Positions 1 through 27,677 of a DNA stretch of 64,000 nt are shown here, piece after piece. The stretch lies in the NCBI GenBank assembly GCA_022592435.1, contig JABYQS010000181.1, positions 1-64,000 on the forward strand, given 5' to 3'. The notes under the pieces are model-generated. The model saw nothing but the letters and a program-made list of their open reading frames with translations, searched no databases and was not told the origin of the DNA. Position 1 is the stretch's first letter; each line of letters opens with the position of its first letter. The DNA is from Cerioporus squamosus (taxonomy: Eukaryota; Basidiomycota; Agaricomycetes; Polyporales; Polyporaceae). The translations under genes were made by a program, and so were the position numbers.

Positions 1-84
1 TAGTATATTGCAGGCGGCTGGACAGAACGACCTTTAAGGCTCTTTGGTTTAAGGTCACGCTCGAAAGCGTAACAGCAGCGAGTT

Positions 85-390
85 GTGTTTCTACTGATCT
101 TGTTTTTGACCCCGCAGGATGCCAACCGGGCAATCACCAAGGGCTTGTATGTGGCCGGCAAGCATGTCAGCGTGCACAGGGACCAGGATGAACTGCAGCA
201 GTGTGCGAAGTGCCACAAATACGACCCCCTGCACCTTGCGCGCAACTGCAAGGCTATACACAAGACGTGCGGAACATGTGCCTCGATCCACCACAAGACC
301 GCGGAATGATCAGCTATCGACCACGACGAGTACGCCTGCATCAACTGCCACAACGCGCATGGACATGCTGCCTGGGAGAAAGTAGATCTG
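85..390 (+). pseudogene. LINE-1 gag-like zinc-knuckle protein, C-terminal part
   Basis: The reading frame holds C-x2-C-x6-H-x4-C (CAKCHKYDPLHLARNC) and a second CGTC-led knuckle. After an in-frame TGA at 307-309, the same frame continues with a third cluster (YACINCHNAHGHAAWE). Such knuckle sets are usual in ORF1 or the N-terminal part of fungal LINE polyproteins, where they bind RNA. The TGA falls where a knuckle cysteine (TGC or TGT) would be expected, so one base change would explain it. The frame continues to about 390 and then meets further stops before the endonuclease ATG at 689. Confidence 0.7.
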
Positions 391-688
391 CCTGGTGTAC
401 CAGTGGGCAGTGCAGAAGATGCAGGCGAGGAGACCAGAGTCGGGCTTCCGATTCTTCCCTCTGGCGGACGACCCATACAGCTGGAAGTCAGTTGAGGGCG
501 GAGAGAGCCTTTTCCAGGTGGACAGGGGGTCACAGCGCGTACACTGGCCACTCACTCAGCTAAGTCGCCTGTCTCATTCTCCATAAGCTGTGATGTCACC
601 TGCAGCGTGCAGGAGGGTTGCTCAGTGACTATGTTGCAGATGTGTTTGATAGCATGGATGACAAGCCCATCTCTCCCTCACAGAACTA

Positions 689-1637
689 ATGCAAGACACC
701 CTCAACACATTACAGATATGGCAGCAGAACCTCAACAAGTCGCTTGATGCCCAAAGCTACCTCATCAACACGGCGCTCGAAGACAAATTTGACATCATTG
801 CCCTTCAGGAACCGTACATGGACTGGAACACGTTGACGTGGGCACACTCTCGCTGGGTGGTTCTCTATCCGAGTGGGCACCACGACCTACATGCACGGGC
901 ACGTTCAGTCATGCTGGTTAGCACAAAGCTGTCAACGAAGGCCTGGTATCAAGTCTTGAGCAGCTATCAGGACTTGACTGTGGTCTCCCTGAAGACTGCA
1001 GATGGTGCACGGGTCCATCTATTCAATCTATACGTTGACTGTGATCACAACAGGAAATTGCACGCAGCGGCGCGGCTTGCCAAGAAGCTCCAACGGCAGT
1101 TCGAGGGCCAATGCCCACAGCACTTCTTCTGGCTGGGAGACTTCAACTGTCACCACCCAAGCTGGGATGACTTGCGCAACGGGCATCTTTTCACCCGCGC
1201 AATCTCGAGCAAGCGCAGCTGCTGATCGACTTCTGTTCTGATCTAGGGATGGAGATGGCGCTCCCGCCCTCGTTGCCTACCCTGTGTGCGTCGCACACAA
1301 AGAACCTCACGAGGCCTGACAACATCTTCTGTTTGGAGGAGCTGCTGGAGCATGTTTCGTGATGCGCGGTGGACATGGTGTACCAGGGGCCGAAGACAGA
1401 CCACTTCCCAATAATCACACATGTGGAGGTGTTGTTGGCAAAGGCAAAGGTGGAGGTATGTCGCAACTTTCGAGCTGTGGACTAGGAAGAGTTCCGGCAG
1501 ACACTGGAGGAGGAGCTGGAGCAGGTGCATCCGGCTGAACGGATCGACTCCCCACAGACGTTTGACGAGTCATTGGACAAGCTCCTGGCCGCGCTCAATG
1601 TGGCAATCGAGAAGCATGTGCCACTCACGTCAATCAC
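689..1637 (+). pseudogene. LINE-1 apurinic-type endonuclease domain (EEP fold), broken
   Basis: An ORF from 689 encodes the start of an endonuclease/exonuclease/phosphatase domain: WQQNLNKS, then DIIALQEPYMD (catalytic glutamate), FNLYVD, and FWLGDFNCHHPSWDD (catalytic Asp/Asn). A frameshift near 1190 moves the rest to another frame, which shows RPDNIFC and TDHFPIIT, the latter holding the expected catalytic histidine. That frame has a TGA at 1360-1362 and a TAG at 1483-1485. The linker toward the RT then runs into the inserted element at 1638. In an active LINE this domain nicks the target DNA to prime reverse transcription. Confidence 0.8.
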
Positions 1638-2702
1638 TAGGCTGTATCACGGGTGTCACAAACCTGCACGGGTTTCCGCGGGTGTCACGCGCGGGTATGG
1701 GTTCGAGTCACAATGTACTGAACCCGCATCACACCCGTGACCTGTGCACGGGTTGTGACACCCGCAAGATATGTGTGTACATCCGCTCAATGTTGACGTC
1801 TCACGATGTTTCATACACCGTTAGAAAGCTACGTTTCGTAGCTTTCCAGCGATGTATGACGCGTCATACGATGACCGCTATAAACGGCGCTATGGCCAGG
1901 GAACATCGACACAGGGGGGAGGATGGAGGTGCTGTAGGTTGGAGAATAGTTGATGCATCTGTGAACGAATGGGATCAGATGATTACAGTGCACTGAGCGA
2001 ATGAACATGCCAAAATGCGTATAGACTGGACATGAATTCATGCAGATATGGCTGGTTTTCTGTGCAGCCACAGAGTGCCGCAGTAAACCGGCCATACCTC
2101 TTGTGAAAACGCATGTATAACGTTGGTGGAGGGCTCATTCGAAAGCGGCGTCAGAAAGCTTTCGAACTAGCCCTCTCGCAGCCCAAACAGCGTGGTATGA
2201 ACTCCAAAGCAATGGATACTCTTGGTCTTGTGCAGTGCTGGTGTACTGGGGGAGATGAAGGGGCACTTACCATGTGAGAGATCCCTGTATACCTCTTATT
2301 CCACCATCTTCTCCCCAGTTTTCTGCTCGTTTCTAGCCCAACACCATGCAGATCTGACAATATCTTGCTGAGATATGGCTGAGGCTTTGAGAGGGCCTGC
2401 TGGAGAGACATTGAAAGTCGAAAATCTGCAAGCATTCTGCTGTACAGTAGCCACAAAAACCCAGTTTGAGCATGGAACAAAGCCCAGGAGCTTGTGTTAG
2501 GCAAGCAGAGAGTAGAAGAGAGTAAAAGAGCAAGAAAACCCGGTCAGAAAACCCGGCGGGTACCCGTACCCGCGGTACCCGTGAGCCCTGGCGCTAAGCC
2601 CTGTACCCGTGGGAACCCACGGGTTCACGGGTCGGGTTTCTGTGCGGGTGTGGGTGCGGGTTCGGTCCGAGACCCCCGCGGAAACACCCGTGGCACACCC
2701 TA
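1638..2702. mobile_element. hAT-like non-autonomous element with ACCCG/CGGGT subterminal repeats, copy 1
   Basis: The element is 1065 bp and flanked by a perfect 8-bp direct repeat, TCAATCAC (1630-1637 and 2703-2710). Its ends are imperfect inverted repeats, TAGGCTGTATCACGGGTG on the left and TAGGGTGTGCCACGGGTG on the right strand. An 8-bp duplication with TAGG-type ends is typical of hAT transposons. Both ends carry about 120-170 bp dense in ACCCG/CGGGT and CACGGGT motifs in both orientations. The interior has short hairpins (GAAAGCTACG near 1836, and a CGAAAGC palindrome at 2139-2170) and no credible transposase. Removing the element with one repeat rejoins the LINE-1 frame. A second copy lies at 53200-54266. 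Confidence 0.85.
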
Positions 2703-4345
2703 TCAATCACACCCTACACAAAGCCCTGGTTTACCAGTGAGCTGGTGGAGGAGTGTTGCAAGATGCACGACCTGGTGCAGGAGGCAAAAAAGAGGTTCAA
2801 GGCGGATCCAACGCATGAGGCCCACCGAGCATACAAGATGCAGTGCAACTGGTATACCGACCTCCAGCGATACTCAAAGAAGAACTGCTGGGCGTCGTTT
2901 CTGGAGGACACCAATGACACCACTATCTGGAAGACCAACCGCTTCATACGCAGGGGCCCCACCAATGGTGGCAAGTCTTGTATCCCGGCGATCAGAGCAA
3001 CAGATGGATAGGGGCAGGAGGTGCTGCTCATGGACAATGAGGCCAAGGGCGCTGAGTTTTACAAGACCTTCTTCTTACCGTGGGTGGATGTCACTGATAT
3101 TCCCGATGACCAGGAGTACCCAGAGCCAAAGTATGTGTTCCAGCCCATCACCGATGAGCAGGTGCACCGTGCAATTCGTCAGCTGAAGTCATTCAAGGTC
3201 CCTGGGCCAGATGGGATCCCGAACGAGGTGTACTGCGCATCAGTGGACGTGCTGGTCCCATTGTTGGGGAAGCTGTTCCGCACAACCTTCGAGCTGCATT
3301 ACTATCCTGAGGCATGGAAGGTCTCGGACACGGTTGTTCTGCGCAAGCCAGGCAAGACAGATTATTCGGTGGCAAAGGCATACAGAGGAATTGCGCTGCT
3401 GAGTTGCCTGTCTAAGATCCTGTCGAAGTGTGTTGCTGATGTCCTTGTCTATCACGCAGAGAAGCATGGCATGCTTCCAAACCTCCAGTTTGTAGGGAAA
3501 TGCACGGGTTTTTGGGCGCTCATTTTGTAGGCCTTTCCTCCCCGCCAGCCATCCTTGAGAGGCTGCGCAGGCAGACAGACCACCAATTTGCTCCACCTAG
3601 TTCAGAAGACCATCAAGGATGCCTGGCAGCGAGGAAAGGTGGCGGCTGCACTCTTTCTTGATATCAAGTCGGCATTCCCTGTGGCCGTCCCAGAGCGACT
3701 CTATCATATTCTGCGCTCGTGGGGAGTGCCCAAGGAGTATGTGCAGTGGCTGCGGGTGAAGCTGGACGGGCGGCGGACCACGCTCAAATTTGACGACTTC
3801 ACCTTGGACCCCTTCCTCATCGAGTGCGGCATCGACCAGGGGTGCCCGCTCTCTGTCATCCTGTACACGTCATACGAGGCTGCATTGGTTGAGGCGGCGA
3901 ACCCTGTGAAGGGCAAACTGGCAGAGGGCTCCATGGACGATGTCACAGTGCTGGTTACAGGCCAGACATTTGGCGAGGTACACACACAGCTCCAGGATTT
4001 CATGACATGTCCTGGAGGTGGTGACGACTGGTCTGCCTCCCACCACTCTTCCTTCTCTGTTGACAAGTTTGGGCTTGTCAACTTCACGCGCAAGCTTAGC
4101 ATCAAGAAGGGTTGGCTTGGGCCAGCACTGAGGCTGCAGGCGCACACAGTCAAGCCCAGCCCCTATCACCGTTTCCTCAGAGTACTCATCAGCTGCAAGC
4201 TGTGGCACCACCCACAGGTTGCAGATGCCTTCGCGAAGGGCTCGGCATGAACGACACTGATGAAGTGTATGGGGCAGTCGAAGCAGGGGCTGCCCATGCA
4301 CGTGCTGATGCGTCTTTATCAGGTGGTGGCACTGCCACCAGTCCT
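2703..4345 (+). pseudogene. LINE-1 reverse transcriptase domain, broken
   Basis: After the inserted element the frame resumes at the usual linker (KPWFTSELVEECC) and runs into the RT. Visible RT blocks are the fingers around FKVPGPDGIPNEV, YRGIALLSCLSKILSK, the palm block LFLDIKSAFPV, IDQGCPLSVILY, and the catalytic box as SMDDVTVLV (the usual YADD/FVDD position, both aspartates kept). Breaks: TAG at 3009-3011, a roughly 60-base interruption at about 3490-3550 between LPNLQF and GRQTTNLLHL, and TGA at 4248-4250, after which the thumb region (LMRLYQVVALPP) continues to about 4345. Confidence 0.85.
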
Positions 4346-5400
4346 TGTAGACTCATTGTATCACTATACAGTAACTGCTGCTCAGTGCACTGCAATTCCT
4401 GCAGTAGCACCAGCGGCAGTTTCTACTGTAGGCAACATGTCGTGCATAGTACAGGGTATCTACTCACAGCAAGCACCAATCCTGGCCTCATGCTCGTGCT
4501 CGCCGTCCTCGTCCGCTGGCTTGCACTCGCCACCTCCCCCACGCTGGTGCTCGCCATCATCCTCAAGCTCACCGTCACTGACCTCGTGCTCGCATTTCCC
4601 AGCTGGGTCGCGCTCGCTGTCGTGCTCGGGCTCGCCATCCTCCCCCCGCGCTCACGCTTGTGCTTGTGCTTGTGCTCACCGTCGTTCTTGAGCTTGCCAT
4701 CCTCGTCCACCGGCTCGCTCTCGTGCTCGCGGTCCAGCTCGATGCATCCCTGGGTGAGCTGGTGCTCGCCTGGCTGCTTTCTGATCTGCAACAAGACATG
4801 GAACTTGAGTTAGTTTGGAGGCATGCTGGCAAAATTTAGTGACAAGCCCAGGTGAGTACAGTCTGGAGCTGGTTATATCTGGTAAAATGGGTCAGTTGCC
4901 TGCGACGAAGACAGGAGTGGTACTAACCTTCCTGTGCTGCACAAGCACCCAGGCGGTGTCTTTTCATCGTGGTAGGGGTAGATGGGTGCAGACAGAGTGA
5001 ACGGGGCGGAGATGGGCACTATATAGTAGGATATGTCAGTGATTGATAAAGAAGACGAGGAGTGTAATACTCACCTGAGACTTCTGCGGGAGGTGACGTC
5101 TTCTGGATTTGAAGAGTGCCATGATCGTGGACGTGGTGGTGATGGCGGTGCTCCTCTGGATGAGCGGTGAACACAGATGCCATGTATGAAGCATGGCGCT
5201 GAGGACTTGCCAGCCATGAACGATCAGGAGGGACGCTATCAAGGTGTGAGAAACAAGGTTGGAAAACTTACCAGTCATACAACATGCTTGCAACCCACAC
5301 AGGGGGTACAGTAACAACAAGATGGATTGCAGTGAACTGATCACAGTGCATGTACATGGTAACAGAGTTACTTTTAGGAACGGCGACAGCTAGTGCCCTG
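4346..5400. other. Non-coding stretch with a CTCG/CTCGCC-rich minisatellite
   Basis: From about 4485 to 4750 the sequence is an irregular array of CTCGTGCTCGCC, CTCGCCATC and GTGCTTGTGCT units, so several frames are open but low in complexity. No convincing gene was seen in the rest. This tract separates the end of LINE-1 from the inferred left end of the hAT element. Confidence 0.6.
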
Positions 5401-5641: not shown

Positions 5642-5649
5642 GGCGCGCG
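5642..5649 (+). repeat. Left target-site duplication of KDZ-1 (GGCGCGCG)
   Basis: The 8-base word GGCGCGCG abuts the left terminal repeat and recurs at 15397-15404 directly after the right one. Eight-base duplications are known for the related Zisupton elements. The word is low in complexity, which slightly weakens it as proof. Confidence 0.75.
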
Positions 5650-6271
5650 CACCTGGACATCACGATCTGATGGATTGATAAACCCGTTATGAGGGGGGGC
5701 TTACCGGGTTAGTTTGAGCCAAATGCTGTTTCCCTGTACTCTACCAGTTCGTCTACGAATATCTATCCCCGAATACTTGAAAGAGTAAGTACTCTTCCCC
5801 TCCCCCAAAAGGTGTGGCGCCCAGGCCCCGGGCTGCTCGGAGAAGGTGCCCGCGTACGTCATCATATCACACCGCCCTCGGCAACTCCCTCCGGGGCGGC
5901 TAACGTCCGCCCCCCGTCGTCCTCGCTGCCAAGGACCCCGTCGCCGCCATCCCCGACGATGAGCTCGATGTCTCCCTCCCCAGGTAAGTGTTCTCATCCG
6001 ATTTCCTCCGTTCTTTTTGCAAACCTAGGCTAACGTACGCTGCGAACACGACTATGATAGTAGCTAATGGATCTGCCAGCCGCGAACATCGTCGCCCGAC
6101 ACCAGGGGGCGGGCTGGCGCGCCCGGTTGAAACTCCGCTCGCAGCAGCCACCGGCACGGTGGCATGTGCGCTCTCTCTCCTCCCATCAAGACGTGGCACC
6201 GCCGCCCCTCCCTCCGACGCTCTTCCGTCGGCTATAACATCCTCAGCCACCCCGCCGGCACGCGCGTGCCC
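5650..6271 (+). repeat. Left terminal inverted repeat of KDZ-1
   Basis: About 622 bases match the reverse complement of 14774-15396 with only scattered differences. Identity breaks down after GCCC at about 6271. The repeat is far longer than most DNA-transposon ends and holds inward-facing splice-like signals: a GTAAGT donor at 5985, and a CTAAC branch-like site near 5900 followed by a pyrimidine tract. Confidence 0.92.
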
Positions 6272-6739
6272 TTCCACTTTAAGTATCGCAGAGAAGCATA
6301 TAGCATTAAGTGAGTGTCTCAGGATGCACTACAAAGCTTGCTGACCTGTGCGTAGTAGAAACATACCCTACTTACCATACCGCAGGCCTCAGAACTGCCG
6401 CGCCACCGCTATCAGAGTTCCATCAGCAACGAGGTTAGCCGACGATATCAGGTACGTCTAACAGCAGTACTTGCGCTATAGCTTCTGCTCATGGGCGGCT
6501 CCCTTGAAGGGTGTATGTCCTTGCAACAGTACGACATAGAGTGGCAGGCAGAGGAGAAGGAGGCGGCGGGCAAGCTTGGAGGGACAGCGGCGGAGGGGGA
6601 GGAGGAGGAGGAGGGGGATGTGCCAGTGATGCTCTTGGCACCAGGCACGCGGCCGACCGGTTCGTATAAGCGCGCAATTTCCGGCACTTTGGGACCTGGG
6701 CGGCTCAGCGTGCACTTGGACGTTTTTATTGTAAGTTAG
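6164..6739 (+). other. Possible inward-facing coding segment starting in the left KDZ-1 TIR
   Basis: An open frame from the ATG at 6164 (MCALSPPIKTWHRRPSLR) crosses the TIR boundary to about 6309, where a GTGAGT donor follows. A further open segment (YDIEWQAEEKEAAGKL and an acidic glutamate run) lies at about 6529-6739. I could not join the exons in phase with confidence, and no domain is recognised. The right TIR holds the same start reading outward to inward at 14881, but it diverges after about 45 codons. It may be a fourth KDZ-1 gene, the remains of one, or chance. Confidence 0.25.
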
Positions 6740-7098
6740 GGTCGTGCATCTTGGTGCTGTATGCCCTTGTATGCCAGGGTTCCTAGTCATGGCACAAGTA
6801 CATTGTATGCAAACATTGCTGGAAGAATTCCGAGGGCAGATCGCGAATTGTGCAGCGTGAAAGATCGGGGCGATAACCGGCGCAACAAGCCGGCAAACAT
6901 GGACCTGCAATGCCAGTCAATCTATCAATAGATCTTAGCCTGCGTGCTTAATTTCAAGCTTAATCATTAGACGTAAACTTATTATTGAGTCATTGTCGTC
7001 GCAACAAGTATGTCTAAGAACCATGGGTTTATTCGGGGACTTGCTGGACATGACATTGCATACAGTATACGAGACTAGTAACATAAGTATGAAGACGT
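6740..7098. other. KDZ-1 interior without a recognised gene
   Basis: This is the 3' flank of the HMG-like cargo gene. No gene or repeat was recognised. It presumably holds that gene's 3' untranslated region and polyadenylation signals. Confidence 0.4.
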
Positions 7099-8866
7099 CT
7101 ACGCTGCGCTACCTCCCTGCGCGCCGGGGTCTTGGCGGGAGCGCTTCTGGGCCTGGGCGGAGGGCTCAGCGTTGCCGCGCTTCTTCTTGCCAGAAGACTT
7201 GTCTGCGCGGGGCTTGCGCGCACGCTTCGGAATGATCAGAGCCGAGCCGTCCGCATTGGTGACGGCGTTGATGAAGTTGAGTGTGACACCAGGTGTGGCG
7301 GCGGCGGCGGCAGCGGTGGCGGCCGGGGCGGTGGCGGCGGCGGCGGCGATGACGGCGTCAGCAGGAGCAGTGGCGGCGGCGGGAGAGGCAGGAGTGGGAG
7401 CGGGAGCAGTCGCGGGAGCGGGCGCAGTAGTGGCCGAGGTGGCGGAAGCGTGCGACGTCGCGGAGACCGGCGGCTCATCATCCAAGGAGGCGGTCGGGTC
7501 GCCGTCGAACATGGTCGCGAGGCCACGTCTGTACGCGTCCTTCCAGTCGACCCACTCCTCGTCGTCCAACTGACGGAAGGTCGTCAACTTGTTCTTGAAG
7601 GCATGCAGCAGGACTTCAAGCTCAATGCGGGAGAGGCTGCCGGGTGCCGCGAAGCGCTTGAGTGGCCAGTTCTTCACGATGATGCCATACCTCATCGTGA
7701 TGTGCTCCTCGAAGTTGATGTAAAACATCTTCGGGATAGTCGTCCGGGTGCAGGACTCCTCTGCAGATGGGCTTGAACATCGCGAGGGAAGGGGGACGAT
7801 AATAGAGTAGAACTCACGCAACGTGTCAAATATAAGCTCCTTGACCTGACGCTTCAGTTCAACAGTCTCTTGACGTGCATTACGTGTTGTGCCTGATGCG
7901 AAGCGTAAGTATCTGGAAGGAATAGAATCGAAGCTGAACTCACCTTCGACGCCCGAGATGACATGAGCCTCCAGCTTCGCAGCAAGATCTGTGATCGGCA
8001 TCTTGGTGACCAGCTCGAAGAAGTCTTGCACACGCTCATTGGTGTAGTAGACGTAGGGGGGGTTGTAATCGTGGATGTGCGAACGGACAGCGAGGAGGAT
8101 GAAGTCGTTGTCGGTGCGTCCCTTGAGCTCGTCCAGCTGCATGGAATTGGAAACTTCAGGGTCAGGCACGGAAGGTATATGGACAGACGGGAGCAGACAC
8201 TCACCTGGCGCGTGACGCTAGCGAGGTTGGCACGGGTGTCATTGAACGCGTGGAGCTGCACGTTGTGAACCCCCTTCACGCGGTTCTCCTGCCGGGCGAC
8301 GAGCTTCTCGAGCTCTTCGCCGGCCTCGGCCTGTCGCTCGTCCGGGGTCATCGCGGCCCAGCGCGCAGAGAGCTCCTTGATGACGCCGTTGTGGACGCGT
8401 TGAGGCTCGACGTCCGAGTCCTCAGGGATGTCTGCGGTGAAGTCAGCGTGTATAACAGGATGTCACATACAGAGACGTGCTCACCAGCGTTCATGCGCTT
8501 CAACTCCTTGCTGATAAACGCGTTCCACAGCGTGATCTTGCGCGGGGCCTTCTTCACGTCGGTGACCGCCTGCAAAATGAGTCGAAAATAATAGTCGGCG
8601 GAGTGCCCGCCGAAGAGCGTCACCATGTCGCGCGCCAGGCCCCAGATGACATCGCGGGCTTCCGTGAGAGCCTTCCGAAGGTCCTCCTTCTTGTCGTCGC
8701 GGGCCTTCTTGAGCGCCTTGCGTTGCTCGGGCGTGAGGTCGCTCTGCTTCGCCTTGCGACGGGCAGCGGCCCTCTTGTTCCAAGGGTAGCGGACCCGGGT
8801 CGAGGCCAGCTTGCGGGCGCTCTTTGTGAGGCGGTAGAGGACGATGTTGGACTTCTTAGCGACCAT
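7099..8866 (-). CDS. KDZ-1 cargo gene 1: protein with an HMG-box-like segment
   Basis: Five exons (8866-8485, 8431-8205, 8136-7944, 7892-7818, 7760-7099) join in phase at GTGAGT...CAG introns of 51-68 nt and give 512 residues. The ATG at 8866 opens a lysine/arginine-rich N-terminus. Residues about 100-170 (KITLWNAFISKELKRMN ... KELSARWAAMTPDERQ) have the spacing of an HMG box, a minor-groove DNA-binding fold. A central part without known domain follows (YVYYTNERVQDFFELV, MFYINFEEHITMRYGI). After it come an alanine/proline/threonine-rich linker encoded by GC-rich repeats and a basic nuclear-localisation-like tail (KRARKPRADKSSGKKKR). It lies tail-inward beside the left TIR. It may assist transposition or chromatin targeting, which is inference. 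The HMG call is tentative. Confidence 0.75.
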
Positions 8867-9052
8867 GGTAAACTGCGCTGAGAGATGAGGGGGTGGGGGG
8901 TTAGAAATTCTGGTAGTGCGGGCTTGCCTTATAAGTTGCGGCCGACTGCACACAATTTTCATCACGTGGCGGCGGGCGTCGGTGGCGCAACGAGCTCTAG
9001 GTCGCCAATGGTTACAAGAAATGTAAGACACAAGATACTAGCGATAGCAAAA

Positions 9053-10234
9053 TCAAAATTCCGGGACCTGCATGACGTCCCACAGGCGGGCCGCATCGCG
9101 TGTGCTCCATCCTAGCGACAGGCCGACGTGGTGCGTGAACGACTCTACCGTCCGCGCATGAACACGGATCTGCAGGAGGGTGAGCAATTCATCTCCCTCG
9201 ACGCCTCTCCTCTGCAGTAGATCGTCCGCCTCCTCGCCAAATACGAGCGGAGGCAGAGGAGGGTTGGCCATGCCACCCATGCTCGGGGGTGCACGGACGA
9301 AGCGACGAAGAAATACTAGGCCCGGCGAGCCGCCGAGGACATCACGAAACGCTGCGCGGTGGTGATCGATAAACGTGATCGAATTATCACGCAACCTTGT
9401 GACTTACCGGCTGTAAGCTCGTCGACGTCCCGGATGGCGGTGGCAAGGGGACGACCTCCTGCAGGAGCAGGACTTGGGGCCGCCGTGGTCTTCACAGGGG
9501 ATCCTGAACGGCTGGGGACCGCGAACGCTTTCTTGACGGGGCTAGCAAGCCTGCTTGCCGAGCCCTCCAAGTTCTCGCGGGGAGTGGGGAGGTCGAACCG
9601 CAGCTGCTTCGTACGTGTCGGAGTCGAAGGGGGAGGGAACGCCGTGCCCGACGCAATAAGAGGCAGATTGAACCCCGGCTTCTTCAACATGAAAATGAGC
9701 GCCTCGACGACGGTCAGAAATCCCTCCCATCGCGGCTTGTACTTCTTTCCAGCGGGAGCTGCGGCGAACTGCTCGACATTGCCCCTGCTGTATGTGAGTA
9801 CACCATTGTTGTCGATAGCAAGGACTCGAACGTACCAGTCAAACCCGATATACACTCCAGTCTCCATGCCGGACCTCACAGCGAATATCGGCCTGTTCAC
9901 CTGGAGATCGGCCGTCGTATCCTTCCAGTGCTGAAGGCGGTAGACCATGTCGTGGGCGTCATCGGCGTCGACGATGGAGAAGATGCCGTGGTGGAAGAGG
10001 GAGAGGGCCTCAGCGTCCTGGCGGTTGGTACAGATGACAACGATGGGGAGAAGAGACTTGAAGTCGTGGAGTGCCACGTTGGCGGGGCTGCAATAGAGTT
10101 CGCTTCTCAGCTTCCCAGTGACAGTCGAACGTGCACTCCTATTACTGCATCGAAACTTACCGTTTCTCGTATATTCCGGGATTATTGCCACCCAGAACGA
10201 CGTAGTAGTTCTTGTTGAACGTGTCCTCGGTCAT
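9053..10234 (-). CDS. KDZ-1 cargo gene 2: two RNase H1 N-terminal-like modules
   Basis: Four exons (10234-10161, 10087-9836, 9787-9408, 9351-9053) join in phase across introns of 73, 48 and 56 nt and give 334 residues. The start MTEDTFNKNYYVVLGG is at once followed by NNPGIYEKR. A second similar segment, PIFAVRSGMETGVY ... YKPRWEGFLTVVEALIF, begins near residue 80. This YVV-G-x-PG(I/V)Y ... F-x-x-EA pattern is that of the small RNase H1 N-terminal (viroplasmin-like) domain, which binds RNA:DNA hybrids or double-stranded RNA. The linker is proline/threonine/serine-rich, and the C-terminal 100 residues are unassigned. No RNase H catalytic domain is present. The domain assignment comes from pattern, not search. 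Confidence 0.75.
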
Positions 10235-10857
10235 TGCGCTGAAGATCGGCGGCACAAGGGAGGAGGAAGAGAGAGATCAAGTGATAAACATACGAAGTCG
10301 AGCTGTAGATCTGCCGATCTACGAGCTAGGCGCTGGCGATCTGGGGCTCGGCTATGCGCCACCGACATGTTTTCAAGGTCTACATGTCGCACACCTCAAC
10401 ATTAAGCAATGAGACATACATAGTTCGACTCTACTAGTTTATACCTTTCGAACGGTACCAATTTCATGGTACCCTGATGAGTGTGACCAAACGTCAATCT
10501 GAACGTCGCAGGTACGCTCATATTTCGCAAATACGCTCTTTCTCTAAGGTGCACTTTCCGTGCTAATGTTCGCTCTCCACTGTGCACCGACGCCAAAACG
10601 TTACCACACACTCCTGCTAGTAGTAGCTGCATATTCCATGTAGTATTATTGTGTAATGTGCCGGAACACAGTCAGGGAAGCCTTAATACCGACCTTAAGA
10701 CGGTGTTAAGACGCCTACTTCGAACCGTTGAAGGTGCACTACGCGCGAACAATCCATCCGTTTCCCATAAAACTCCACACAAGCATGCTTTGTATACATT
10801 AGAACGTGTCCATAGATATGCGAAGAGTCTGCGGGCCAGCAGCGCTGGACTAGAAGC
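10235..10857. other. Intergenic region of KDZ-1 upstream of cargo gene 2
   Basis: These 623 bases lie between the stop of the KDZ transposase gene and the start of cargo gene 2, both on the minus strand. The region should hold the transposase 3' end and the cargo-gene promoter. No clear TATA box, repeat or further gene was seen. Confidence 0.4.
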
Positions 10858-13800
10858 CTACAACATGACGTTCTGCACATACTCTATGAGGTTCGTCATC
10901 TCATCATCTGCCTCGTCGTCGTCGCCGAGAAGCACGTCATTGCTCTCGTCATCTCCCACAGTCGTTCCGGCCTCCGTGGCATCTGACGAGACCGCCGTCG
11001 TCGCCCTGTCTTGCAGGTGGGGTGGGAGAAGCGAAGGCCCATCGCGAACGCCCGGCTCGGGGTTACCGGAGAACTCGGGTAGCTGGTACGTAGCACGAAC
11101 GTAAGCCATGGAGCGTGCATTCAGAACTCTTCGCCGACGCCAGTAGTCGTGAACTGCACCATGCAGCGCGGGGTTCTTGTCCTTGAGATCGTCGAGAACA
11201 GCTTTGAAGAGCTCTTCCTCGTCCCACACCCATGTGTGTACGCGTCGCAGCTCCCGATGCACGTTCTTGATCTCCTCGTGAGCCCTGGCAACGCGCTGCG
11301 ATAGGCGCATAACCTCGCGAACTGCCGGAGTCGCCCAAGGCTTCTCACGCAAGTCATTGCGCGTGTCCGCGAGAAGATGGAATTCCTCGATAAAGGTGTA
11401 GTGCGAGGCCTTGTTCCAATCGATAGCTTCTCGCGGTGGATCAAGCGCGGCGGCAGCGGCGTTGTAGGCTTTGACGGCTGCTCTGATGGCCTTGCATCTC
11501 CGTTGGAGGTTCTTCGCAATATACGTTCGGGCCTTGTAGCCTGTAACACGAGGTCAGTAGGAGACGCGCGCGTAGTAGGGCGCGTGTACGTACCTGTCTG
11601 CGCCAAGTTCATCTTATGCAGTTCAAACAGTCGCTGAATGACTAAACGCTGCAATCTCCCGAGAGCCCGCTGGTACGTCCGAGTGGTGATATACTTCGTT
11701 GCGTTCACGTACTTCTCGTCGGTGCGCGACCACCGTTTGTCGATGCCTAAGCGAACCTCGATCTCCGTGACGTCAGCGCTCAGTCGATCAACTCGATCGC
11801 GCAGGTACCGCCGGCGCGTCTCCAGCTTGCGAGTAGCCGATAGATCGCTATCATAAGATGTCGGGCCCGAGGTTGGGGTCAGGAACGTCAACCCCGCCCC
11901 CGCCTTAGCGGCCTCGGCGGCTTCCGCGACTCGCGCAGCGCGATCATAGTAGCGCGCGGAGGTGTCCTTGAGTTCCTCGCTGGGGTAGAAGGTATCAGTA
12001 GTTGCGGGACAGCCCATATAACAGAGACATACCTTGCATCCCAAAGCTCCCGAAGTGCCTCAACGTACAGTATGTCGCGGAGATCGTCCGGATCTTCGTC
12101 GCGGAGGTTGGAAAAGTACTCGGTCTCCTCGGCCTCGAAATGATGAACGTCCTCCTCAGTGAGAGACAGCGCTTGCAGTGCTTCTTGCATGATGGGAGTC
12201 TTCTCCTTGATGATCTCGAGGGCTTGCCGATAGTTGTTGTACAGCATCTGTCCCAGATTTCCGTACTTCTCGTCATCCCAGTGTTCAAAGTAGAGGGCGA
12301 TAAGCATGCGGCGCCTATACGGCGAGGCGTAGCGCGTGACAGAAGCGAGCTGATTGGAAGCGCTGAAGATCCGTTCCATCGTCTCCAAGTCCTCCAGGCC
12401 CATCCCGACGATTCGGTTTGGGTGGTACTTGACCTGACACTTGTACGAGTGCGAGTAGCCGTGGAAGGAGTTGACACAGAAGGAAGATCCGGACGCACGG
12501 AACTCCTCGCCGATGGAGCTCCGGAGAATAGTGAACAAGAACTCGCAGCCTATGTCGTATCCGTGCATATTCTTGCCCTTGAGCACCCGGACCGTCTTTG
12601 CAGTCATAGCAATGCCGTACTTCGCCCTGATTAGCAGTTAGCTTCAGAAGGTCACCACACATAGCAAATATGCACTTACAATTCGCCACTTCGCACGATA
12701 TCTGCAATCCACAAAATTAGACCATGGCGGCATGCGCTCGCGAAGATCCCCGATTCATCGTAGATCGACCACATGCGTTTCTTCTCGTCTGCGGCGGCAG
12801 CCTTCCAATTGGTCGCGCAGGATCCGAGCGTCTCGGCGCCATCAGTCGGATCTCCCTCCCTTTCGCCATCAGGAACCTCGTCATCATCGTCGGATTCCTG
12901 ACCGGGCTCCTCGTCGTGCGGGTTTTCGGCAAGAACAGGTTTGCGGGGAAGCTGTCGAGACTTGACCTCGTTGGCGAAGGAATCTACGAACTCGTGGGGA
13001 AGGAAGTAGTCGTCTTTGAACAGGCGAAGGTCGGCGGTCGCGCGCCCGCCCGAGGCTAGCACACGCTTCAGTGAGTTGTTGCCATCCATGACGACCATCC
13101 TATCAAATACGGGGGGCTCCTCGCCCAGCAGCTATGTTCATGAGCACGAGAACGCAGCGTTAAGGCAGGCTCAACATACCTTGTTAGCGCACGCCGGGCA
13201 GCCATTCTTCGCTCTCCACTCCTCGGAATCGCGTCCGAGCGCCATCATTACCTGTGCCTTGACGTCACGGAGAATTACGAGGTAAATGTCGAACGCGTCA
13301 GCGATCGCCTTCCGATAGAACCGCCGGTACGGAATCTGTCAGGAACCGGTTAGCCGATCAATCTGGTTGCCGCGCTCTGTTAGACGTACGTAGTAGACGT
13401 AGCACAACAACTTGGTGAATGCTTCTGTACTGAATGATGCCTTGAATGTGCGTATGAGTCGAAAGAGCTCGAGGGTCCTGAAGGATATCGCGAGGGAGGG
13501 ATGGAGGGGAGCGGTGGCTAGGTAGCCGTGGAGCACGAGGTCCTCGACCAGGGACCTGTCCCGCGTGATAGTCGCTGTTGTGGCAGTGCTATAGATGTCG
13601 AGCACTTGGAAGTCCTCCATCGCCGGAAGGATCTCGGGGTCCTTGGGGGCGGGAGTGCCATATCGCCACTGCAGGTATGCCTTGCAGACGTCTGGCAGCA
13701 CGACTTTCCAGTTGTCATCGAAGTTCTGCAACCGCTGGCGCCATGACCGACCATCTCTGTAGACCCTCGAAGCGCTGTGGAGGCTGGAAACTATGAGACT

Positions 13801-14274
13801 TGCGCGCAACTTAGATGATCACAGATTGAGTTAAGCTTACCGAGCGCTGAGCAGATCTCGGATTGCAAGCGCTACCGCCGCTTCTCCGGTTTCTGCTTCA
13901 TCCTCCCAGTTGTCGTCGCCGTCATCGTTCTGCATGGTGAAGCCGTCCAGGAGGGGGTCGTCGGCGTCTGGGTGCTCTTCCCGTCGGAGGTCTGCTAGAT
14001 CTTTCCGAGATTCGACACCTAAGGCTATAGTGGTGGTCAATGATCGCAGTAGCAATAGAGTATAAGCCTTGCGCGCACAGTTCTCTATCTCCTTCAGCCG
14101 TGCTTTGGCGCGCTCTCTCTCAGCCGCCAATCCCGCCAAGCCAATGGTACGCGACTGTGGTCCCCCAAAGAACCGCGATGCTCCCTGTCCACCACCACGT
14201 GCGCCCGAGAATGCGGACCGCACAACGGTTACGCGGCGACTGGTACCCTGCCTAGAGATATTAGATTGTGTCAT
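10858..14274 (-). CDS. KDZ family transposase (CxC1 class), intact
   Basis: Seven exons (14274-13841, 13783-13390, 13335-13180, 13131-12680, 12626-12033, 11979-11594, 11540-10858) join in phase over introns of 48-57 nt and give 1032 residues with no stop. Conserved KDZ stations appear in order: NGCPACANK (cysteine cluster), MVVMDGNNSLKRV (first acidic residue of the RNase H-like core), IYDESGIFASACRHG, SGELAKYGIA, YDIGCEF, FHGYSHSYKCQVKYHP, GLEDLETMERIFSASN (candidate catalytic glutamate), and the C-terminal stretch MNLAQTGYKARTYIAKNLQ. The N-terminus is arginine/glycine-rich; the C-terminus is acidic. It should cut and paste KDZ-1 via the long TIRs. Intactness suggests the element may still be competent, which is inference. 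Confidence 0.93.
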
Positions 14275-14311
14275 GGTTAGAGAGAACTACTGCTCGAGCG
14301 ATGTACTGGGG

Positions 14312-14322
14312 TAATATATATT
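14312..14322 (-). promoter_or_regulatory. TATA box of the KDZ-1 transposase gene
   Basis: On the minus strand AATATATATTA lies about 40 bases upstream of the transposase ATG at 14274. It is the only strong TATA-like word between the gene and the right TIR, and it implies a very short leader. Confidence 0.5.
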
Positions 14323-14773
14323 CTCTGCAGTGGATGATACAGATCATATCTGATCTACATCAGGCACCCATCAACTCTAGCGAGCGCGCTCGCTTGTGAA
14401 GTCCCTTCCGCCGGCCTCACAGCCCTCCTACTACGTAGATCGACGTCCATACCAGCCACTCGCAGCCTGCCTCAAGTCCCCGCTATACCCTGCCGTGCAG
14501 CGGTACTTCTGCACACTGAGGATACAAACAATGACTTACCGGGAGTGCGAGACTCCAGTAAACACCCCGAGGAGTGCGTACGTCGTGCGATGTGATCGAT
14601 AGTCGGGTAATCCTTGAAGCAGAGGCGGAACATCAGCCGATACATGTGCGACAATCGAGATGCGACACTGACCTTGTATTCTGTGTATGCGGGATCCAGA
14701 TGCCTCCAGGATGTTTGGCTGCGACAAGAGCCGCTGCGGTGGCGGGAGAGAAGGCGGGAGGAAGAGTGTCGGA

Positions 14774-15396
14774 GGGCGCGCGCGTGCCGGCGGGGTCGCT
14801 GAAGATGTTATAGCCGACGGAAGAGCGTCGGAGGGAGGGGCGGCGGTGCCACGTCTTGATGGGAGGAGAGAGAGCGCACATGCCACCGTGCCGGTGGCTG
14901 CTGCGAGCGGAGTTTCAACCGGGCGCGCCAGCCCGCCCCCTGGTGTCGGGCGACGATGTTCGCGGCTGGCAGATCCATTAGCTACTATCATAGTCGTGTT
15001 CGCAGCGTACGTTAGCCTAGGTTTGCAAAAAGAACGGAGGAAATCGGATGAGAACACTTACCTGGGGAGGGAGACATCGAGCTCATCGTCGGGGATGGCG
15101 GCGACGGGGTCCTTGGCAGCGAGGACGACGGGGGGCGGACGTTAGCCGCCCCGGAGGGAGTTGCCGAGGGCGGTGTATTATGATGACGTACGCGGGCACC
15201 TTCTCCGAGCAGCCCGGGGCCTGGGCGCCACACCTTTTGGGGGAGGGGAAGAGTACTTACTCTTTCAAGTATTCGGGGATAGATATTCGTAGACGAACTG
15301 GTAGAGTACAGGGAAACAGCATTTGGCTCAAACTAACCCGGTAAGCCCCCCCCTCATAACGGGTTTATCAATCCATCAGATCGTGATGTCCAGGTG
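14774..15396 (-). repeat. Right terminal inverted repeat of KDZ-1
   Basis: This is the near-identical inverted partner of 5650-6271 and ends ...CCAGGTG at 15396. Small differences are visible, for instance ATAATACACC where the left copy reads ATATCACACC. About 450 bases separate it from the transposase promoter. Confidence 0.92.
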
Positions 15397-15404
15397 GGCG
15401 CGCG
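15397..15404 (+). repeat. Right target-site duplication of KDZ-1 (GGCGCGCG)
   Basis: This direct repeat of 5642-5649 lies immediately outside the right TIR and 48 bases before the hAT transposase ATG. Confidence 0.75.
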
Positions 15405-15451
15405 CGGTACATGGACAAAGAGCAAGCTGAAGCATCTAAGTATACCACGAC

Positions 15452-17472
15452 ATGGGTAAGCTGAAGCAGGCAGTGACAGTGGCCGTCAAGCCTGTCACCG
15501 CCGCACTCAAACGGCAGGCCTCGAACATCTCATCGAAGATCCGGAAGAAGCGCAAGGGAGATGATGCGTCGAGCGCAATCTCGGTCGACTCGAGTACCAG
15601 CAGTGGATACAGAAGTCCAACCGTGGAAGATGCCGAGGATGAAGACGATGTCCAGTGTCGCGGCAGCACTGTGGGTGCCAGGGAAGACAAGGACGAAGAT
15701 GCACCCATGTTGAGCGCGGCGGAGATGAAGAAACTGCAGGAAGATCTCAGTGAGTACTTATGCGCTCCCTTGCACGAGTTCAAGGAACTTACATGATATC
15801 AGAGAAACGCCAGGGCCGATGGAACTCCTACATCTACGTGTTCTACAAGCCCATGGTCGAGATCATAGTGATCAGTCCCACAAAGATCACGCACGAGTTT
15901 ACGTGCGCGAAGCCTGGCTGCAAAGAGACGATCAGACGGTACCAAGACACGGAAGATGCCACATCCACGGGGAACATGACCGGCCATGCGGTAGCGTGCT
16001 GGGGTAACGAGATTGTGAGTGCAGTGAAGGCAGTGGGCGGCCACACGAAGTGCTGCCCGATGGTGGAGTCATTCGGTCGGTCCGGCACTATCACAAAGAT
16101 GTTCAAACATATCGGTAAAGGAAAAGTCAGCTACATGACTCGTCAGCACACCTCGATGGAAACCCGGTACGTAGCTTCTCAAACGACTGCGGCAAGCCAT
16201 TCTGATGGCCGGGTTGCGGAGAACAAACAGCCTTACGAGATTGTGCATAATTGCGTGTTCTTGACTTTGATGAAAACTGGGCGCCCCAAGTACAAGATCC
16301 CATCGCCGTCGACCATCTCGCGTGATGTACGGCATGTGTTCACGCGGTGCCGATCCCAAATCGCCAAGATGTTGAAGGTGAGTCGCAATGGTGTGTGATG
16401 CAGGGGAATAGCACTGACCATCGAATGGCGGCGGCCTGCAGGACTTCGAGGGCGATTTGAGCTTTACCTGTGACACATGGACATCCCCTAATCACAAAGT
16501 GTTAGTAGCATTCGCTGTTCACCTTCATCACGAGGGCACACCTTTGTCCTTCCTCCTGGATGTTGTCGAGATCGCTGAATCGCACATGGGCGAAGTGCTG
16601 GCGAAGGCTTTTGAGACCATGCTGCGGGAGTTCGAAATCAGCGAGAAGGTACGTTGAGCGACCATGTGAATGTGATATGAGGCTTATGAGTTCCAGATCA
16701 TTGGCGTGACTGCCGACAATGCAACGCCGAACGACATGATGATTGACGAGATGGCCAAGGTGCTCCCGAACTTTGGCGGCCAGAATGCTTGCGCCCGATG
16801 CTTCGACCACATCGTGAATCTGTGCGCCAAGTCGGTCTTGAAACCCTTTGACGTTGGGAAGGACAAGGCTGGGGATGCGAAGATGGCCGTGGAGGAGGCC
16901 ATCGCAGCCCTGCTGGAAGATGTCGACTTGTATGCAAGTGGTCTCAACGCTGCTGCCGGCGAGGACATTGGTGACAACAACAACGAGGATGGGCTGGTGG
17001 ACGAGCGGGATGAGATGGACAAGGGGGAACGTGAAGATCTTGAGGAGAGCATTGCACCAGTCAAGCTTGTGTTGACGAAGGTACGTGATAGCTCAATGAA
17101 CGACTTACCTGCCTGTGACGACCCTCTGCCAGATCCGTACTCTCGCCTACAAGATCATCAACTCTTCGACTATTCTCCTCCCAGCCTGGAACAAGATCGT
17201 TGAGGACCTTGAGTTGCCCCCGCGCGTATTGCCGCGGGATGTTCGTACGCGCTGGAATTTGACTTACCAGATGTTGGACGTTGCGTTGAAATATCGTCTG
17301 GCCGTCAACGGGATCACGGGAAGCAAGAAGTATGATTTGCGCGACTATGAGCTGGACGAGGAGGACTGGACAGTGGTGGAGCAGCTGCGAGACGTCCTCA
17401 AGGTACGTACTTGACATCCCATGACGCCCGGGTGCACGGACCATGCACGTGCGTTGCACTTAGGTGCCTCTC
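15452..17472 (+). pseudogene. hAT transposase with BED-type zinc finger, 3'-truncated
   Basis: Exons 15452-15749, 15803-16377, 16442-16648, 16697-17080, 17133-17402 and 17464-17472 join in phase (introns 48-64 nt) and give about 581 residues before a solo LTR interrupts. A basic and acidic N-terminus precedes a BED-like finger (FTCAKPGCKETI ... GHAVACWG). hAT core stations follow: FTCDTWTSPNHKVLVAF (first Asp), IIGVTADNATPNDMM (second Asp), CARCFDHIVNLCAKS, and TRWNLTYQMLDVALKY. The C-terminal hAT dimerisation region is absent because the LTR starts three codons into the last exon. No stop or frameshift was found in what remains, so the LTR event and the KDZ-1 insertion in the leader appear to be what silenced it. 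Confidence 0.9.
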
Positions 17473-17896
17473 TGTTAGCTGCAGTGCGCCTCAGAGCGAT
17501 CATAATGGCCTATGTCGAGCTCTGTGAAGTCTGATACATTGACAAAAGCATATCTACACACCTATGTCGAGCTCTGTGAAGTCTGGGGACTCCAGAGCTC
17601 GACGAGCGCGCTGTCTACGGTGCGGGTTACATAAGCTATACAGTACCAGCAGCCACAGCGCCCAGGAAATCAACAAAAGCGAAAAGGCAAAAAATCAGTG
17701 AAGACCAAGAGGTCGAGTGTTCAATCCCGGGAGTGTGCAAAGAATAAAATATGAAGAAGCGCCAATATCTCGAAGAGGAATGAAGGCGTCAAGTAGTCGT
17801 GTGGAGCGCCAATAGAGCGCACTGCAATAGTCCCCTGGTGCAAGTATGGACTTGACACGGGCACAGGAACTCGGAGATAGAGCTCCGAGTTCAACA
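17473..17896 (-). mobile_element. Solo LTR, family A, copy 1
   Basis: Read on the minus strand the 424-bp unit begins TGTTGAACTCGG and ends GCAGCTAACA, the TG...CA ends of an LTR with a short terminal inverted repeat (TGTT/AACA). Copies 2 and 3 (19188-19610, 36583-37003) are closely similar over their full length. The flanking pentamers here (CTCTC and CTACG) do not match, so this copy has lost its duplication through recombination or deletion. It truncates the hAT transposase. Confidence 0.8.
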
Positions 17897-17998
17897 CTAC
17901 GTTCTACATAAACGCCCAATCTCTGCGGTCAGCGACTAACGACATCGAGAGATGCAGGAAAGCAGTTACTTACAGGATGTCTGAAACGACTCGGGTGC

Positions 17999-18412
17999 CT
18001 ACCAACACAGGCGCGATTCGCCGTTGTCCGTCGACGTCAAACACCACAATGAGCCTCCTTCTGCGCAACCACCAAGCCTCGCCCCTGCGAGATAGCTGTC
18101 CCGATCTTCCCCTGCCACCTTGAATGTCTTTGGTGAGCAAGGCAGTTGCCTCGACGCAACGACAGCGACCACCTAGAATGCAAGCTAGGTTAGCTTCGCT
18201 AAGGCGGAACATACCTGTACGTACAGACTGTCATTCACCTCCTCGCTGTGCCATCCAATGAGCTTGATGCTCCCATGGTCCGAGTTGACATGGAGGACAT
18301 CATCTCCTTGTGACACGGCTCGCGCACGGAACGCGTCAGCCTCCCCCAAGGGGCTGTCTTTGTCGGCTTTGCTCGGCTCGTATACCGGGGCAGGGACGCG
18401 TGCTAAGCGCAT
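17999..18412 (-). CDS. Small unassigned two-exon protein
   Basis: Exons 18412-18215 and 18172-17999 join in phase across a 42-nt GTATGT...CTAG intron and give 123 residues starting MRLARVPAPVYEPSKAD. No domain was recognised. The first exon is compositionally normal (GDDVLHVNSDHGSIKLIGW). The second is serine/glycine/cysteine-rich and may not be real. It lies between two inverted copies of the same LTR, so it could be a fragment of a larger displaced gene. Confidence 0.3.
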
Positions 18413-26847: not shown

Positions 26848-27677
26848 CTTCCTACCTCTGTACCGTTTCTATAGAGCCGACTGGTTCGGATAGGGAGATC
26901 GGAGGAGACCCTGTCATGCTCAGACTAGGAGGTTGATGGACCAGCCGCGGATTCGTGATAGGGGCCACTGAATGTAGGAGGATTCTGACACTATTGAACA
27001 TGTCGGAAGTCAGAACAGAGGTGATTCTGAGCAATCCAATACTTACAATTGTCGCCGGAGGACGTACACTAAGGTAAGGCGGGACGTTGCGCGGACTTTC
27101 CTGAGGACGTTGTGAGGACGTGGTGGTCACAGAGACACCCGCACGATTGCAGCATACCTGGTACGTGAGGTGGATAGCAACACACGATAAACGTTCCGTT
27201 CCAGCATGTTTCGAGCCTTTCCGCCCTTGACTCATCGTTGGTAGTACTTCCCTTGACGCTCGACTGTGGGAACCCAAGGAGCCTTCAGTCCCACTTCACC
27301 CTGCGTGAACACTGCGTTCCAAGTCTACTCATGATTCTGACCGTTGAATTGGATGCGCTGCCATTGGCGGTGGTTGCGGAGACAAGAAGAGCACTTTTAC
27401 ACGAGGTGGCGGTTGCGTGGCGGGGTTCGGCAACTGCCGAGCGGTCAGGCCGACGTTCAACAGGCACGAGAGTGACGTCCCGCAGCTCCATAATCCGGTA
27501 CAGGTTCGCGACTGAAGGAGGAGGAGGAGGAGGAGGAGGAGGAGGAGGCGGCAAGTTTTAGTCAGGCAGTGACGGCACCTGCGCCCATTCCCCCCTCCGG
27601 CCGACCACGGACTCTACTTAGGGATCAGAGCTGCTCGCCTTGGATACATCGCGCGTATATCAGGGAGGAGGGTTGCT
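26848..27677. other. No firm gene; includes a GGA repeat
   Basis: A minus-strand frame at 26852-27277 is proline/serine-rich and might be a 5' exon of the RING gene, but I could not connect it in phase. The short stretch at about 27614-27677 lies just outside the LINE-2 target duplication and may be the continuation of the dehydrogenase relic. Confidence 0.35.
27517..27548 (+). repeat. (GGA)n microsatellite
   Basis: This is a perfect run of about ten GGA units. It encodes polyproline on the minus strand and polyglycine on the plus strand, which keeps several spurious frames open. Confidence 0.9.

What the first reader, a model, noticed from the sequence alone, without database searches (positions are those of the whole stretch)
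5650..15396. Intact 9.75-kb KDZ transposon with very long TIRs and three clean multi-exon genes
Seen: ~622-bp near-identical inverted repeats, an 8-bp duplication, and three genes that splice in phase without a stop (1032, 334 and 512 residues). Known: KDZ elements of fungi were described as carrying a large RNase H-fold transposase with cysteine-rich accessory domains, and some carry or border TET/JBP dioxygenase genes. Here no dioxygenase is visible; instead there are two other cargo genes. Inference: a recently active KDZ with its own gene set, possibly a multi-protein transposition system.
Basis: partly seen in the sequence, partly recalled or inferred. Interest (0 to 1): 0.8.

Follow-up and report, generated by a model that had tools for sequence, protein, structure and literature searches.

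The report
Mushroom transposon carrying three conserved genes
This stretch of a polypore mushroom's genome is an intact jumping gene of the KDZ type whose two extra genes do not look like random passengers: related elements in the same genome keep the same kind of gene set, which suggests that the element supplies its own helper proteins.

Summary
Window 5650-15396 is a complete KDZ DNA transposon (623-bp TIRs, 99% alike; 8-bp TSD GGCGCGCG) with three intron-rich genes on the minus strand: a KDZ transposase (Pfam E 1.8e-73), G2 (~333 aa) and G3 (~512 aa). The host is probably Cerioporus squamosus. A second copy (85% alike in the TIRs) and three other complete elements, transposases only 38-53% alike, have the same genes in the same order and strand, long TIRs, a CACCTG end and exact 8-bp TSDs (5 of 5). 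A sixth, cut by a contig end, has G2 and G3 too; two more loci of that transposase clade carry G3 beside a different middle gene. G2 and G3 are under purifying selection like the transposase. G3 holds a divergent HMG box; G2 a fold like the RNase H1 hybrid-binding domain. So they look like helpers, not cargo. Recent activity is not shown: no near-identical copy or empty site was found. Fungal KDZ elements with accessory genes, including (recalled) an HMG protein, are known, so this is a new variant; G2 is the part not met in the papers seen.

The parts
5642..5649 (.). left target-site duplication GGCGCGCG
5650..6272 (+). left TIR, starts CACCTGGACATCAC
7099..8866 (-). G3: ~512-aa protein, 5 exons (8866-8485, 8431-8205, 8136-7944, 7892-7818, 7760-7099); divergent HMG box plus two further folded regions
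9053..10234 (-). G2: ~333-aa protein, 4 exons (10234-10161, 10087-9836, 9784-9408, 9351-9053); RNase H1 hybrid-binding-domain-like (Cauli_VI-like) fold plus C-terminal helical domain
10858..14274 (-). G1: KDZ transposase, 1014-1032 aa, 7-8 exons
14773..15396 (-). right TIR
15397..15404 (.). right target-site duplication GGCGCGCG

Best explanation
This is an intact, self-sufficient KDZ cut-and-paste transposon that encodes three proteins which work together. Shown: the transposase (G1, KDZ domain), the ends (CACCTG TIRs, 8-bp TSD), the keeping of G2 and G3 with G1 across diverged families, and purifying selection on all three genes. Inferred: G1 cuts and joins the ends; [quoted passage not shown] G2, with one clear and one probable RNase H1 hybrid-binding-like fold and a helical C-terminal domain, binds nucleic acid (an RNA:DNA hybrid or dsRNA) and acts either in the transposition complex or in protecting the element's transcripts from RNAi. 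I put about 0.85 on G2 and G3 being element functions rather than passengers, 0.6 on G3 as an architectural cofactor, and 0.45 on G2 as a hybrid or dsRNA binder.
For: KDZ domain E 1.8e-73. Searches of the own genome with G3 and G2 led to loci beside KDZ transposases: complete elements C92, C501, C65, C855, C77 and the contig-end copy C551. Each of the 5 complete elements has TIRs of 493-689 bp (97.8-99.8%), an exact 8-bp TSD and the end CACCTG(GA/AT)CATCAC, although the transposases are only 38-53% alike outside the C92/C501 pair. The diverged G2 of C77/C551 still aligns to the C92-type G2 (hhalign probability 84.3, E 7.2e-6, columns 6-145), that of C855 over the whole length (98.6, E 5.1e-16). 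KDZ tree of 26 rows: the 8 G3-bearing rows form one clade at 100/100, and 0 of 500 label shuffles cluster as tightly. C92 against C501: dN/dS 0.12-0.14 (G1), 0.18-0.22 (G2), 0.13-0.18 (G3); differences at codon positions 1/2/3 are 51/31/196, 50/29/106 and 43/22/100. Arthromyces matolae (Agaricales) has one predicted protein, P0008, that joins a G2 relative (hhalign probability 96.1, E 3.5e-9) to a G3 relative. Two Lentinus brumalis G2 proteins lie on contigs of the same lengths (428928 and 360043) as two L. brumalis G3 proteins. HMG: with profile A8 against the PDB the first 19 of 50 rows are HMG-box proteins (best E 0.0033); Pfam HMG_box in 3 of 15 G3 relatives or exon pieces, best E 3.6e-4. 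G2: profile A2 hits the human RNase H1 hybrid-binding domain 3bsu, E 1e-5; Cauli_VI is over its cut-off in the C77 copy, P0011 and P0013.
Against: C388 and C758, in the same transposase clade, keep G3 but have a different middle gene, and in C758 the G3 block is inverted to the transposase, so G2 is replaceable; the ends of C388, C758 and C551 were not examined. The window's own G2 misses the Cauli_VI cut-off (20.2 against 21.0 bits), with only residues 10-23 matched, and the window's own G3 gives no HMG match at E<=1 on its own; P0008 gives no Cauli_VI or HMG match at E<=1. The G2 model is poor (mean pLDDT 53). Foldseek found no match at E<=0.001 for either model (best 0.19 for G2, 0.46 for G3). 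48 of the 56 merged KDZ loci of this genome have no detected G3, so KDZ transposition does not in general need it. Weak matches to the last 65-80 residues of G3 (E 0.0017-0.0094) occur at C24 (three), C177 (two) and C988, contigs with no KDZ match. No biochemical or expression evidence exists here.
Confidence: 0.8

Rival explanations
1. G2 and G3 are counter-defence genes: they blunt RNAi or chromatin silencing and are not part of the cutting machinery. The Cauli_VI fold, named for caulimovirus P6 (a silencing suppressor, recalled), would bind dsRNA or hybrids.
For: RNase H1 hybrid-binding-like fold in G2; replacement of the middle gene in C388/C758 fits a host-facing function; G2 evolves fastest (75.5% aa identity against 92.2% for G1 and 89.1% for G3 between C92 and C501, over the codons kept).
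Against: G3 looks like a DNA-binding, bending protein and is kept even where the middle gene is replaced.
Confidence: 0.35
2. Captured passenger genes with no role for the element, carried along by descent.
For: KDZ elements of fungi frequently carry accessory genes (stated in PMC12477816, passage seen), and 48 of 56 KDZ loci here have no detected G3.
Against: Purifying selection and open frames in both genes, and retention in one order in diverged families.
Confidence: 0.1
3. Gene-model artefact: the ORFs between transposase and left TIR are not real genes.
For: No RNA-seq was available; splice sites were chosen by a simple scoring script and by hand.
Against: Codon-position pattern and dN/dS, matching models in other families, and independently predicted proteins with the same junctions.
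Confidence: 0.03

Closest known systems
KDZ1, KDZ2, KDZ3 of Cryptococcus neoformans (PMC12810828, passages seen)
   Same: KDZ transposase, about 9-11 kb, TIRs, TSDs of 8 bp (KDZ1) or 4-8 bp (KDZ2, KDZ3); shown there to insert into a reporter gene
   Different: TIRs 139-241 bp against 493-689 bp; CxC1 domain reported there, not recognised here; the passages seen name no G2/G3-like gene, and whether those elements have one was not tested
TET/JBP-bearing Kyakuja, Dileera and Zisupton elements of fungi (Kojima 2025, PMC12730594; parts 1-3 of 7 and passages read)
   Same: KDZ transposase; 8-bp TSD in Dileera and Zisupton; accessory gene on board
   Different: no TET/JBP found here; TET+ Kyakuja has 7-bp TSD and no TIRs; no HMG or RNase H1-like gene is named in what was read
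KDZ elements of Iyer et al. 2014 (PNAS, doi 10.1073/pnas.1321818111; not held; abstract recalled)
   Same: the recalled abstract says several KDZ elements encode additional proteins including a divergent HMG domain, which would be G3 or its kin
   Different: the TIR/TSD-defined element, G2 protein, fixed three-gene order and selection test are added here; whether that paper already has G2 could not be checked
RNase H1 hybrid-binding domain / Cauli_VI (PF01693)
   Same: beta-beta-alpha-beta-alpha order in the G2 model and profile match
   Different: no RNase H catalytic domain among the Pfam matches of G2; a second, weaker copy of the fold in front and a helical C-terminal domain behind
HMGB1 as cofactor of RAG1/2 (Transib-derived recombinase; role recalled)
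   Different: here the HMG protein would be encoded by the transposon itself; no interaction shown

Membership tests
KDZ transposon superfamily | KDZ transposase domain (PF18758) | tested here: met
   247.3 bits against cut-off 26.6, full profile 1-217
KDZ transposon superfamily | TIRs and 8-bp TSD (Zisupton, Dileera, C. neoformans KDZ1) | tested here: met
   5 of 5 complete elements
KDZ transposon superfamily | conserved acidic motifs of the RNase H-fold core (MDGNNS, [YF]DIGC, GxEDxExMER; assignment as catalytic is recalled) | tested here: inconclusive
   motifs present in 5 of 5 transposases; catalytic role not tested
KDZ transposon superfamily | CxC cysteine cluster of fungal KDZ transposases | tested here: not met
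   CxC1 12.0 bits against cut-off 26.9; C855: CxC3 11.5 against 26.6 (first 609 residues given); one CPAC motif kept in 5 of 5. Not known to be required of all KDZ
Kyakuja lineage as in PMC12730594 | 7-bp TSD and no TIRs (as reported for TET+ Kyakuja) | tested here: not met
   8-bp TSD and 623-bp TIRs
Dileera or Zisupton lineage | position in a transposase phylogeny with named references | not testable with these tools
   no reference sequences at hand; only the own genome's KDZ rows were treed
PF01693 Cauli_VI / RNase H1 N-terminal domain (G2) | Pfam score over the cut-off of 21 | tested here: inconclusive
   window G2 20.2 and C551 16.7 are under it; C77 22.5, P0011 25.5, P0013 26.3 are over it; profile to 3bsu E 1e-5
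HMG box (G3) | profile or fold match to HMG boxes | tested here: met
MADS box and GTF2I domain (regions 178-243 and 260-361 of P0003) | profile match to known members | tested here: inconclusive

The most novel reading that the evidence does not exclude
A clade of fungal KDZ transposons is a three-protein transposition system: besides the transposase it encodes its own DNA-bending factor, built from an HMG box followed by MADS-like and GTF2I-like folds, and an RNase H1-hybrid-binding-like protein that ties transposition to RNA (R-loops, hybrids or dsRNA). A cut-and-paste DNA transposon with an RNA:DNA-hybrid-binding partner would be a new kind of coupling.
Probability: 0.25. Interest if true: 0.75.

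Novelty: new variant of a known kind. Interest (0 to 1): 0.55.

Why it matters
KDZ elements are large cut-and-paste transposons, shown to be mobile in a fungus (PMC12810828, passages), and what their extra genes do is, as far as I know, open. A conserved set of three genes with defined ends and target-site duplications can be turned into a transposition assay and tested gene by gene. If the two helpers are needed, this would be a DNA transposon that brings its own architectural protein, and the RNase H1-like helper would make a link between DNA transposition and RNA testable.

Tried and rejected
Rejected or empty: (a) G2/G3 as chance ORFs (codon-position pattern and dN/dS). (b) TIR identity as a clock: the arms of one element are 97.8-99.8% alike while the two elements of one family differ by about 15%, so the arms seem to be homogenised and do not date the insertion. 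(c) An empty site in this assembly: joined flanks matched only the window's own two flanks plus one 70% match over 162 bases at C922, which does not answer the question. (d) TIR-only relatives: the TIR query matched four places, that is two elements. (e) Homology of the middle gene of C388/C758 to G2: an 80-residue C-terminal piece gave hhalign probability 0.5; its front part was not compared with G2 by profile. (f) Sequence support for MADS and GTF2I folds: none. (g) Viral contigs with a G3 relative: none of 60 pattern matches confirmed. (h) Foldseek: nothing at E<=0.001 for G2 (best row Tic22, E 0.19) or G3 (best row a GTF2I domain, E 0.46). (i) Protein-database reach is limited: 2 hits, 10 hits and 3 hits, each after scoring only 7,989-7,998 candidates; so distribution outside Polyporales and one Agaricales species is not known. 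(j) Literature: in the listings of searches and in the passages opened I saw no HMG or RNase H1-like partner of a fungal KDZ named; most listed papers were not opened. The key paper, Iyer 2014, is not held, nor is Huang 2024. (k) Alignment A3 placed short exon pieces wrongly and was not used.
Full report
What is there. Window 5650-15396 (9747 bp) is bounded by inverted repeats of about 623 bp (99.0% identity, 5 mismatches and 1 gap), whose ends read CACCTGGACATCAC, and by the 8-bp direct repeat GGCGCGCG. Between them lie three genes on the minus strand: G1 (14274-10858), G2 (10234-9053) and G3 (8866-7099), with 13 or 14 introns in all. Predicted proteins in public databases support the models: P0011 of Lentinus brumalis, 334 aa, has the same three G2 junctions, and P0004, the host's own partial G3 record, agrees at three of four junctions.

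Host and setting. The genome (53,974,592 bases, 988 contigs) is unnamed, but contigs C92 (68,591 bases), C77 (75,836) and C501 (214,649) have the lengths of the contigs of three Cerioporus squamosus proteins, P0004, P0003 and P0012; this is inference. On my reading of the ORF translations the right flank looks like a hAT-type transposase gene and the left flank like a non-LTR retrotransposon (no domain search was run on them), so the element sits among other transposons.

G1 is a KDZ transposase: PF18758, 247.3 bits, E 1.8e-73, whole profile. The motifs MDGNNS, [YF]DIGC and GxEDxExMER are present in 5 of 5 transposases compared; that they hold the catalytic residues is recalled. No CxC zinc cluster is recognised (12.0 bits against 26.9).

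The TIR query matches two elements in the genome: the window's and one at C501:129560-139285 (85% in the TIRs). C501 has all three genes in the same order. Searching the genome with G3 and G2 then led to further families. Complete elements with KDZ, G2 and G3, collinear and on one strand: C92, C501, C65, C855, C77. A sixth, C551, runs off its contig end inside the transposase but has G2 and G3. The C92 G2 query did not find the G2 of C77 and C551; it was found by reading frames between transposase and G3. The two are each other's relatives (41-44% over long stretches), carry the same fold (Cauli_VI over its cut-off in C77, under it in C551) and align to C92-type G2 with hhalign probability 84.3, E 7.2e-6 over columns 6-145 only. 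The G2 of C855 aligns over its whole length (98.6, E 5.1e-16). The five complete elements have TIRs of 623, 557, 493, 664 and 689 bp at 97.8-99.8%, lengths of 9747, 9726, 11265, 9823 and 11158 bp, exact TSDs GGCGCGCG, ACCTGGGT, TACAATTT, GTTGCCGC and CGATGAGT, and one end motif, CACCTG followed by GA or AT and CATCAC. Transposases outside the C92/C501 pair are only 38-53% identical, so these are diverged families with one layout.

How far the association goes. PF18758 gives 92 matches, 56 loci after merging within 3 kb. In a tree of 26 of these loci (23 different rows; those whose DNA had been fetched; 128 columns; two long branches flagged by the program) the 8 rows with G3 form one clade at 100/100. 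Two of the eight, C388 and C758, were found by a local search with more seeds and confirmed; in C758 the G3 block is inverted relative to the transposase, and both have a different middle gene. The ends of C388, C758 and C551 were not examined. For C250, a KDZ outside the clade, 6.1 kb next to the transposase showed no G3 or G2 match. For the other KDZ loci, absence of G3 rests on three genome searches with three seeds and is a statement about detection; that C388 and C758 were missed by the first two shows the limit. Weak matches to the last 65-80 residues of G3 at C24 (three), C177 (two) and C988 have no KDZ on their contigs and are unexplained.

Other fungi. G3 relatives: 10 database proteins, from Cerioporus squamosus, Lentinus brumalis, Earliella scabrosa, Fomes fomentarius, Arthromyces matolae and two without a name. 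G2 relatives: 3, from L. brumalis and C. squamosus. Two L. brumalis G2 proteins lie on contigs of the same lengths as two L. brumalis G3 proteins. In Arthromyces matolae (Agaricales, Lyophyllaceae) one predicted protein carries a G2 relative in front (hhalign probability 96.1, E 3.5e-9) and a G3 relative behind, which implies adjacency there, whether or not the fusion is real. KDZ neighbours in other species could not be checked.

Selection. Between C92 and C501 dN/dS is 0.12-0.14 (G1, 986 codons), 0.18-0.22 (G2, 322) and 0.13-0.18 (G3, 503), with third positions holding most differences. Codons in poorly matching stretches were dropped before the count, and one C501 exon of G1 was missed by the model. 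This is one pair of copies. Genes without a use would not be expected to show it.

How it most likely works (inference). G1 recognises the CACCTG ends and cuts and pastes with 8-bp staggered joining. G3 bends and bridges the long TIRs to pair the ends. G2 binds nucleic acid, either in that complex or to shield transcripts from RNAi. The replacement of G2 in one subclade and its faster change favour a host-facing task for G2; the retention of G3 favours a core task for G3.

Known or new. KDZ elements with TIRs and 8-bp TSDs are known and mobile in Cryptococcus (PMC12810828, passages). TET/JBP-bearing KDZ elements are described by Kojima (PMC12730594, parts 1-3 of 7 and passages). Accessory genes in fungal KDZ are called frequent in PMC12477816 (passage), which cites Iyer 2014. 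I recall that the Iyer abstract names a divergent HMG domain among the additional proteins; the paper is not held. So G3 as an HMG protein is probably known. The RNase H1-like G2, the three-gene order with defined ends, and the selection test did not appear in the search listings and passages seen. Verdict: a new variant of a known kind. Recent activity remains unproven.

Noticed in passing
window 35474-35782: A second KDZ domain match on the minus strand, partial and with two TGA inside when introns are not spliced; perhaps a decayed relative.
   Followed up: partly
window 15400-18000 and 1-5000: The right flank carries what looks from its translation like a hAT-type transposase, with a possible start about 50 bp beyond the insertion; the left flank looks like a non-LTR retrotransposon. 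No domain search was run on either.
   Followed up: partly
C65 about 57690-58280 (in L063): The G2 gene of element C65 contains a repeat-like insert of several hundred bases with inverted ends, apparently inside an intron, where it could be spliced out.
   Followed up: partly
L073 (C24:17928, with further matches at 29655 and 41375) and L080 (C177:17070, with one at 27454): Weak matches to the last domain of G3, spaced about 11.7 kb and 10.4 kb, with no KDZ match on those contigs: another repeated unit may share this domain.
   Followed up: partly
L074 (C388) and L075 (C758): In two members of the clade the middle gene is different from G2, and the two are 41% alike over an 80-residue C-terminal stretch.
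   Followed up: partly
window 5981-5990 and its mirror in the right TIR: The TIR holds a splice-donor-like CAGGTAAGTG reading inward, so the right TIR may carry the promoter and first untranslated exon of the transposase gene.
   Followed up: no
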